From Rhodanobacter sp. OK091 (GTDB lineage Bacteria > Pseudomonadota > Gammaproteobacteria > Xanthomonadales > Rhodanobacteraceae): a stretch of DNA of 64,000 nt. Below the pieces are notes generated by a model. That model saw nothing but the letters and a program-made list of their open reading frames with translations, was not told where the DNA came from and made no database searches. Positions 16,441-28,499 of this stretch are shown piece after piece. The DNA lies in contig NZ_FRCH01000001.1 of the NCBI RefSeq assembly GCF_900142825.1, forward strand, positions 186,001 to 250,000. Reading direction: 5' to 3'. The stretch's first letter is position 1; every line of letters starts with the position of its first letter. The position numbers and the translations under genes were made by a program.

Positions 16441-17146
16441 GTGGGAGCGACTTCAGTCGCGATGGCTTTGCTCTTTGGTGGTTTGTTTGAAGCGAAGAGC
16501 TTTCGTGCGCCATTGGCGCCCGAGTCACTTTCTCTTTGTGTGGCCAAAGAGAAAGTAACCAAAGAGAAAGGCCACCCCGCTTGGCGCTTGCCGCCCATCC
16601 GTGGGCGGCAAGTCCGTGAGCCGGGGCCGGGCTTTTCGAACGGGCATCCTGCCCGTGCGAAAAGGAGTCGACCTCCCTGTCGACTCCCGCTGTGCGGCCT
16701 GTCGTCCCCGTCTCACCGCCGCACAGGGGCCCCGGGTAGAGCAGCAGGCCATCGTGGCCTGCACTTTTCAGAAGAGCCAGGTCAACGGCCAGAGCGACGC
16801 TTCGCTTCGGCTTTTCATCGAGTGCGGGCCAGGAAGGCCCGCTGCTCTACCCGGGGCCCCTCTGAAGCGGCGGGTGGGTGGAGGAACAGCCCGCAGGGTG
16901 GTTCGCAAGGATGCGAACCAGTTTGGCGTCAGGGCAGGATGCCCTGTCGACAAACCCCGTAACCCGCCCGCGGACTTGCCGGGCAGGATGCCCGGCAAGC
17001 GCGTAAGCGGGGTGCTCTTTCTCTTTGGTTACTTTCTCTTTGAGCACGCAAAGAGAAAGTGACTCGGGCGCCAACGGCGCACGAAAGCTCTTCGCTTCAA
17101 ACAAACAACCAAAGAGCAAAGGCATCGCGACTGAAGTCGCTCCCAC
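16441..17146. repeat. 706-bp nested palindrome bounded by inverted REP sequences
   Basis: Outer arms of ~150 bp (16441-16590 and 16997-17146) are nearly identical in inverted orientation, each starting with the REP motif GTGGGAGCGACTTCAGTCGC. Inside, a second pair of arms (GGGGCCCC at 16726-16733 and 16853-16860, continuing through GTAGAGCAGC) has the same symmetry centre, about 16793. Each arm also holds small hairpins of the type GGGCATCCTGCCC (near 16640, 16932 and 16980) and CAGGCCATCGTGGCCTG. Several short open frames cross it on both strands, but they are mirror images of the repeat and are not credible genes. No transposase is present. The interval 16320-17262 holds no gene. Confidence 0.85.
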
Positions 17147-17174: not shown

Positions 17175-17249
17175 GTAGGAACGGCCTCGGCCGCGATGCT
17201 GTTGCTGCGGAGCGAAGGCGAAGGGCATCGCCCGCCAGCGGGCTCCTAC
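17175..17249. repeat. Inverted pair of REP sequences (BIME-like)
   Basis: The left REP at 17175-17197 (GTAGGAACGGCCTCGGCCGC...) and the right REP at 17227-17249 (reverse complement starting GTAGGAGCCCGCTGGCGGGC) face each other across 29 bp. They resemble the ends of the neighbouring 706-bp palindrome and the pair at 28428-28499. Confidence 0.75.
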
Positions 17250-17262
17250 CTACAAGATGGGG

Positions 17263-28427: not shown

Positions 28428-28499
28428 GTGGGAGCGACTTCAGTCGCGATGCTCCTAGCTGGAACCACATAAGAGCATCGCGACTGAAGTCGCTCCCAC
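28428..28499. repeat. Inverted pair of REP sequences (BIME-like)
   Basis: GTGGGAGCGACTTCAGTCGC... at 28428-28450 and its exact 23-base reverse complement at 28477-28499 are separated by 26 bp. The 23-mer is identical to the two ends of the 706-bp palindrome at 16441-17146. It lies between the GNAT-nitrilase gene and the ClC gene and can form a stable hairpin. Confidence 0.85.

What the first reader, a model, noticed from the sequence alone, without database searches (positions are those of the whole stretch)
16441..17146. 706-bp nested palindrome with REP termini
Seen: outer ~150-bp arms and inner ~35-bp arms share one symmetry centre near 16793, and each arm itself carries small hairpins (GGGCATCCTGCCC type). 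The ends are the same REP 23-mer found at 28428-28499. No protein gene is inside and no transposase is near. A perfect-enough 700-bp palindrome is usually unstable in bacteria, so its persistence suggests recent arrival, selection, or a dedicated maintenance mechanism. Inference: a non-autonomous element built from REP ends, possibly mobilised in trans by a REP-associated tyrosine transposase.
Basis: partly seen in the sequence, partly recalled or inferred. Interest (0 to 1): 0.6.

Follow-up and report, generated by a model that had tools for sequence, protein, structure and literature searches.

The report
REP-bounded palindromic hairpin-array repeat family
The 706-base palindrome is one of about 18 full copies of a non-coding repeat in this Rhodanobacter genome, built from two mirror-facing strings of DNA hairpins, and a signature part of it that could fold into a three-stranded DNA knot recurs, often in facing pairs, across Gammaproteobacteria, apparently undescribed.

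Summary
16441-17146 is a strong nested inverted repeat, and not an isolated oddity: the genome (Rhodanobacter) holds about 18 full copies (75-93% identical to it), plus half copies. Each is two facing ~272-nt units, each a row of hairpins, around a GTAG-REP pair and a short centre.

Comparing copies shows (i) stems swapped as blocks with strict Watson-Crick pairing (3322 of 3355 cells; 2 G.T), pointing to DNA rather than RNA; (ii) a centre found in both orientations; (iii) a Y-loop-R-TAACC-R' module whose third segment mirrors R and whose loop pairs downstream, i.e. an intrastrand-triplex/pseudoknot design, found in 84 of 369 gammaproteobacterial genomes (67 of 272 genera).

Relatives carry empty sites, collapsed copies, short REPINs at the same place, and at the window site a 26-bp scar bounded exactly by the REP tags. 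The terminal REPs are the types that flank RAYT genes in sister species, but this genome has no such RAYT, and about half the elements scored have no recognised REP ends.

Best reading: an old palindromic DNA element lodged inside REP ends, now inherited vertically and remodelled by template switching and palindrome deletion. RAYT mobilisation is plausible but unproven.

The parts
16441..17146 (.). whole element, one of about 18 full copies in the genome
   Evidence: ends fixed by the allelic site in L101
16441..16465 (+). outer REP, type A (GTGGGAGC-GACTTCAGTC-GCGATGG)
   Evidence: same REP flanks RAYT genes in four sister genomes
17123..17146 (-). outer REP, type A, inverted
16498..16772 (+). 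left (L-type) ~272-nt hairpin-array unit (approximate ends)
   Evidence: profile hit at L001:1558 onwards
16815..17089 (-). right (R-type) ~272-nt hairpin-array unit, facing the left one (approximate ends)
   Evidence: profile hit L001:1875-2149
16524..16575 (+). triplex/pseudoknot-capable module of the left unit: Y stem, loop GTGGCC, R stem, TAACC, mirror strand R', GGCCAC
17012..17063 (-). triplex/pseudoknot-capable module of the right unit (loop GTGCTC pairs with GAGCAC)
16587..16612 (+). hairpin slot S3 (TTGCCGCCCA-TCCG-TGGGCGGCAA), approximate coordinates
16641..16655 (+). hairpin slot S4 (CGGGCA-TCC-TGCCCG)
16664..16688 (+). hairpin slot S5 (GGAGTCGAC..GTCGACTCC), approximate coordinates
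16736..16850 (.). inner inverted pair of GTAGAGC-REPs around the centre (nested REPIN-like)
16763..16822 (.). centre, present in two opposite orientations among copies

Best explanation
A two-layer, non-autonomous, non-coding DNA element. Inner layer (core): two facing ~272-nt units, each a string of DNA hairpins opening with a module able to fold into a triplex/pseudoknot, around a GTAGAGC-REP pair; the signature module of this core is old and spread over Gammaproteobacteria. Outer layer: RAYT-type REP ends (GTRGGAGC...GCGATG) in inverted orientation, which in this lineage enclose the core as the spacer of an oversized REPIN. Likely working (inferred): on the lagging strand the single strand folds into the hairpin array; a REP-recognising Y1 transposase (RAYT), supplied in trans in the past, cut at the GTGG tags and pasted the structure into other intergenic gaps. 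The cognate RAYT is not in this genome now, so copies are inherited vertically and change by replication: template switching copies one hairpin arm onto the other and flips the centre, and slippage across the palindrome collapses copies to small scars. Shown: copy number, boundaries, empty sites, collapsed forms, flipping, strict stem pairing, mirror and loop covariation, RAYT-REP matching in sisters. Inferred: the mobilising enzyme, the ssDNA fold in the cell, template switching and slippage as causes.
For: Copies: and alignment; matches in 25 of 25 genus members searched, own included. Empty sites: 8 relatives lack the copy at L137:7118-7799; at L137:13350-14031 six relatives are empty and four have only a short REP pair there. 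Exact REP-tag boundary and 26-bp scar GTGGGAGCGACTGAAGTCGCTCCCAC in L101; such palindromes occur in 5 of 45 genus genomes, as foreseen for REPs by Bertels and Rainey (PMC3116915). Collapsed elements at one syntenic site in G041 and G053. RAYT (NF047646, E 5e-39) with matching REP type A, B or C on its flanks in sister genomes. Own units are usually closest to own paralogs (36 of 37 listed match or exceed the best unit sampled elsewhere), as expected for spread or exchange within the genome. Centre in both orientations: 5 forward, 11 reversed of 16. Template switching between inverted repeats is known to homogenise arms and invert spacers (PMC8604942). Stems strictly Watson-Crick; S2 helix no one-sided changes against some 80 two-sided ones. 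Mirror and loop covariation. Spread of the module.
Against: No RAYT of this kind in the host. Of 67 full elements scored, 35 had no recognised REP within about 110 bp at either end, mostly outside this genome (the REP pattern is strict and misses decayed REPs), so REP ends cannot be what moves the core in general. Ends of unlike REP type occur in single copies, odd for one RAYT. Transposition was not observed and no target rule was found. The empty-site flanks at L137 are diverged, so insertion is not resolved to the base there; only the window site is, and its other allele is a REP palindrome, not a pristine empty site. Paralog closeness could come from gene conversion alone, and other genomes were sampled less fully.
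Confidence: 0.6

Rival explanations
1. Plain RAYT/REPIN element: the whole 706 bp is simply a long REPIN and the core is passenger DNA without a history of its own.
For: REP ends exact, REPs match RAYT flanks, most own copies carry REPs on one or both sides, short REPINs of the same REP abound.
Against: About half of the elements scored have no recognised REP ends; the core's module and its facing arrangement recur in other families, and no such REP was noticed beside the few distant elements read by eye.
Confidence: 0.2
2. A structured RNA or transcript-end element: the hairpins act in RNA as terminators, attenuators or a small RNA, and are kept by selection.
For: Intergenic; of 15 copies with both neighbours scored, 6 lie between convergent genes and 7 between tandem genes; strong folds; pseudoknot covariation.
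Against: Almost no G.U pairs (2 G.T among 3355 cells; none one-sided in S2) although stems vary widely; no Rfam family at gathering threshold and only weak sub-threshold matches; syntenic sites lack it in many relatives.
Confidence: 0.07
3. A self-standing mobile or structural DNA element of Gammaproteobacteria moved by an unknown single-strand DNA enzyme that recognises the triplex/pseudoknot ends; REPs in Rhodanobacter are bystanders that inserted next to it.
For: Module in 67 of 272 sampled genera, facing pairs far outnumber back-to-back ones; REP ends optional; the module sits near the outer end of each unit.
Against: No associated protein gene was identified; the window element ends at the REP tags, not at the module.
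Confidence: 0.12
4. Assembly artefact or chance palindrome.
For: Palindromes are hard to assemble; many distant module hits sit at contig ends.
Against: About 18 copies inside contigs, allelic variants in many independent assemblies; z = -33.
Confidence: 0.01

Closest known systems
REPINs / BIMEs with RAYT (TnpA_REP)
   Same: Inverted GTGG/GTAG-tagged REPs at the ends, intergenic, no gene inside, matching RAYT-REP types in sister genomes, solo-palindrome scars
   Different: About 700 bp instead of roughly 66-125 bp for the same REPs here; holds a second REP pair and two hairpin-array units; RAYT missing from this host; the core also occurs without these REPs
Intrastrand triplex (PIT) motifs such as BoxC / TM_ECO (Holder et al. 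2015, PMC4666352)
   Same: Order Y-loop-R-short linker-R', dispersed intergenic copies, also found in inverted arrangement with deletions that leave hairpins
   Different: A-rich instead of G/C-rich, longer linker (TAACC), extra loop-to-downstream pairing, built into a ~272-nt unit and usually paired face to face
GTAG-tagged REP families (PMC3733652)
   Same: GTAG tag plus hairpin, many units close together in opposite orientation
   Different: That paper does not name Rhodanobacter or Xanthomonas relatives in its text; here the GTAGAGC pair is nested inside a much larger palindrome
MITEs
   Same: Non-autonomous inverted-repeat element in many copies
   Different: No target-site duplication seen at the resolved site, no related DDE transposase known, ends are REPs

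Membership tests
REPIN/RAYT element | two inverted REPs with the GTGG/GTAG tag at the outer ends | tested here: met
   window copy and most own copies; not general to the family
REPIN/RAYT element | REP type matches the REPs flanking a RAYT gene | tested here: met
   types A, B, C in sister genomes
REPIN/RAYT element | cognate RAYT in the same genome | tested here: not met
   no hit in G000; only a Y1 protein below the RAYT cut-off without REP flanks
REPIN/RAYT element | short doublet (about 70-110 bp) with a small spacer | tested here: not met
   706 bp
REPIN/RAYT element | cleavage and movement by RAYT | not testable with these tools
   needs biochemistry
Intrastrand triplex (PIT/BoxC) motif | Y-R-R' with R' the mirror of R | tested here: met
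   18 of 20 asymmetric types mirror>direct; distant set 5 of 7, none the other way
Intrastrand triplex (PIT/BoxC) motif | folds as a triplex in vitro | not testable with these tools
   needs CD/NMR/probing
MITE (DDE type) | target-site duplication | tested here: not met
   flanks of the window copy and of L101 show none
Structured RNA family | covariation with G.U intermediates, Rfam match | tested here: not met

The most novel reading that the evidence does not exclude
A class-wide, undescribed family of large palindromic DNA elements whose units each begin with a DNA triplex-pseudoknot module under a 'third-strand code' (A to A, G to G; internal T to C and C to G at pyrimidine interruptions), processed as single-stranded DNA by an as yet unknown machinery and only secondarily coupled to REP/RAYT in Rhodanobacter.
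Probability: 0.35. Interest if true: 0.85.

Novelty: new variant of a known kind. Interest (0 to 1): 0.62.

Why it matters
It links two threads usually kept apart, REP/RAYT repeats and bacterial intrastrand-triplex motifs, in one large recurrent structure, and it offers natural evidence (coordinated three-way covariation across many genera) that a triple-stranded nucleic-acid fold may be conserved in bacterial genomes. It also gives a natural record of how long palindromes persist: arm homogenisation, centre flipping and collapse to scars. The claims are testable with short oligonucleotides and with long-read comparison of strains.

Tried and rejected
Rfam at gathering threshold gave nothing and at E<1 only weak matches far below family cut-offs. 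Pfam on the overlapping ORFs: nothing, taken as spurious reading frames. No phage hits; one short hit in a record listed as an Aeromonas caviae plasmid, whose length (4.9 Mb) suggests a chromosome. The host's own Y1 protein as mobiliser: rejected, no REP flanks and below the RAYT cut-off. A gene inside wide-spaced distant pairs as an autonomous version: the ORFs in L271 and L288 were listed but not identified; none was taken for a transposase by eye. A REP pattern with the wrong stem length found nothing. A first module parser mixed in antisense hairpins and was replaced; a first regex for distant loci failed and was replaced. The paralog/ortholog script mislabelled unit types and stopped early; only its own-versus-other list was used. 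Literature search for the motif strings found no paper, which says little, since the library lacks most subscription journals.

Full report
WHAT IS THERE. Window 16441-17146 is a nested inverted repeat: outer arms 143 nt (94% complementary), inner arms 50 nt (86%), one centre. Its single-strand fold is 33 standard deviations below shuffles. The genome, placed in Rhodanobacter by the neighbouring gene's relatives, holds 17 copies spanning most of the query (75-93% identical by best match), one more with a larger centre (L018), and half copies. Twenty-five of 25 genus members searched, own included, have matches. Of 15 copies with both neighbouring reading frames scored, 6 are between convergent, 7 between tandem and 2 between divergent genes (frames chosen by an automatic codon-composition rule, not annotated).

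ANATOMY. Each full element is two facing units of about 272 nt (159 near-full profile hits before de-duplication, 128 distinct sequences). The left (L) and right (R) units are two diverged subtypes with the same order: hairpin S1, module S2, hairpins S3, S4, S5, and a GTAGAGC-tagged hairpin S7; the two S7 form an inner inverted REP pair. The gap between the unit profile hits is 29-218 bp. In this genome REPs of the form GTRGGAGC-stem-GCGATG stand outside the units, types A (stem GACTTCAGTC) and B (CCGCTNGCGG), sometimes one of each. A type C (GCACCCTGTGC) is seen in relatives.

STEMS. Across units each slot shows many stem sequences, exchanged as blocks with complementarity kept: 3322 of 3355 pair cells are Watson-Crick, 2 are G.T, 7 A.C, 24 other (the stem finder favours well-paired stretches, so mismatches at stem ends are under-counted, and slots S2 and S5 were poorly captured there). 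A second count, on the alignment made with the covariance model, gives 99.1% paired in S2, no one-sided changes and some 80-110 two-sided cells (that alignment is fitted to the structure and includes some antisense self-matches of the same hairpins). RNA helices that vary this much normally show G.U pairs (general knowledge), so the pairing seems to be kept at DNA level, by templated copying of one arm from the other, by selection on a DNA fold, or both. Template switching in inverted repeats is documented to homogenise arms and flip spacers (PMC8604942, abstract read), and the centre here is found in both orientations (5 forward, 11 reversed of 16 parsed).

THE S2 MODULE. It reads Y - loop - R - (G)TAACC - R' - tail. 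R pairs with Y. R' is the mirror of R: A4GAGA2 goes with A2GAGA4, GAGAGAAA with AAAGAGAG, and so on; in 20 asymmetric types mirror beats direct repeat in 18, and mirror matching exceeds all 5000 shuffles (types are related by descent, so this is not a probability). The loop pairs with the tail (GTGGCC/GGCCAC, GTGCTC/GAGCAC, TGCCC/GGGCA, TGTC/GACA), mean complement 5.1 nt against 3.7 shuffled, with two-sided changes in a 19-sequence alignment. In loci from other families, fetched after the hypothesis was formed, the same holds for those that could be parsed (20 of 37 hits; 5 of 7 asymmetric types mirror over direct, none the reverse; loop pairing above all 2000 shuffles). With 57 distinct types, third-strand bases follow R: A to A 350 of 364, G to G 89 of 95; these counts come from modules pre-selected to match the mirror within three bases, so they describe the pattern rather than test it. 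Internal T in R goes with C (G381, G405, G428) and internal C with G (G512, one Rhodanobacter unit); these few cases are a lead. Mirror symmetry is not produced by inverted-repeat template switching, so it points to a structural constraint; the design equals that of intrastrand triplex (PIT/BoxC) motifs (PMC4666352), with a pseudoknot-like extra pairing. Whether it folds so, as DNA or RNA, is untested.

SPREAD. A covariance model of the module matched 84 of 369 sampled Gammaproteobacteria, 67 of 272 genera (E-values from a short calibration). Neighbouring modules in distant genomes are face to face in 11 cases, same strand in 4, back to back in none; sequences read out show 0.4-0.65 kb palindromes with further internal hairpins. 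I did not test these distant elements systematically for REPs.

ALLELES. At the window site, UBA5168 (L101) has, between the same flanks, only GTGGGAGCGACTGAAGTCGCTCCCAC: the left REP end joined to the right REP end at a shared GCGACT. That is either deletion of the element or a REP palindrome that preceded it; it fixes the boundaries at GTGG and CCAC and shows no target duplication. At a second site (copies L007/L003) relatives show full elements, arm-tip remnants (L150, L153), three different short REPINs, or nothing. At two further sites many relatives are empty and four have a short REP pair at the second.

RAYT. The host has one Y1 transposase, below the RAYT cut-off and without REPs near it. 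A true RAYT (NF047646, E 5e-39) found in G015 has hits at E<1e-20 in 20 of 45 genus genomes, several interrupted, none in the host. Those with REPs beside them match by type: A with A (L237, L238, L239, L253), B with B (L248-L250), C with C (L243, L244, L246, L247, L251, L252). So the window element's ends are, by type, RAYT-associated REPs, and the enzyme was lost here or never fixed.

REP ENDS ARE OPTIONAL. Of 67 full elements scored by an automatic REP pattern within about 110 bp, 35 had none at either end. The pattern is strict and misses decayed REPs (some visible), so the true share is lower; but L028, L029, L031, L049, L171 and others show no REP by eye. This is why I separate a core from its REP shell.

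VERDICT. Real, repeated, structured and partly understood. Shown: family, anatomy, boundaries, empty and collapsed sites, strict pairing, mirror/loop covariation, RAYT-REP matching in sisters. Inferred: past RAYT mobilisation, ssDNA folding, template switching. Open: what moved the core outside Rhodanobacter and whether it has a function for the host.

Noticed in passing
window 17177-17251: A short REPIN with unlike ends (GTAGGAACGGCCTCGGCCGCGATGC ... GCATCGCCCGCCAGCGGGCTCCTAC) lies directly right of the element; a relative of its left REP is also present in L101.
   Followed up: partly
window 28428-28499: A short 72-bp type-A REPIN, the common small form of the same REP.
   Followed up: yes
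L136:7372-10363 (G000:C2:269372-272363): Two full copies in opposite orientation bracket an ORF that reads like a diguanylate cyclase (GGDEF, by eye); at the same place G014 (L160) has two half units about 1.4 kb apart.
   Followed up: partly
L154, L155, L200: A small inserted sequence (CGGGCAACCGCTCCTGCGTTGCC...GGCATCCATGCC..CGCC) sits inside the loop of a hairpin in several units, as if it targets hairpin loops.
   Followed up: no
L019, L040, L018: Half units and one full copy have, at the inner side of a unit, a hairpin of the kind CGCAACCGC-GAA-GCGGTTGCG next to ACCGAGTGCGGGCC.
   Followed up: no
L021:1174-1866: The host's only Y1 transposase lies beside an ORF that looks like the C-terminal part of an RHS-type protein, not beside REPs.
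   Followed up: partly
G405, G381 and others: Many module hits lie within about 100-200 bp of contig ends, suggesting that short-read assemblies break at these palindromes.
   Followed up: no
L196, L209 (G222): Another genus of the family has a shorter form with the two modules about 240 bp apart.
   Followed up: no
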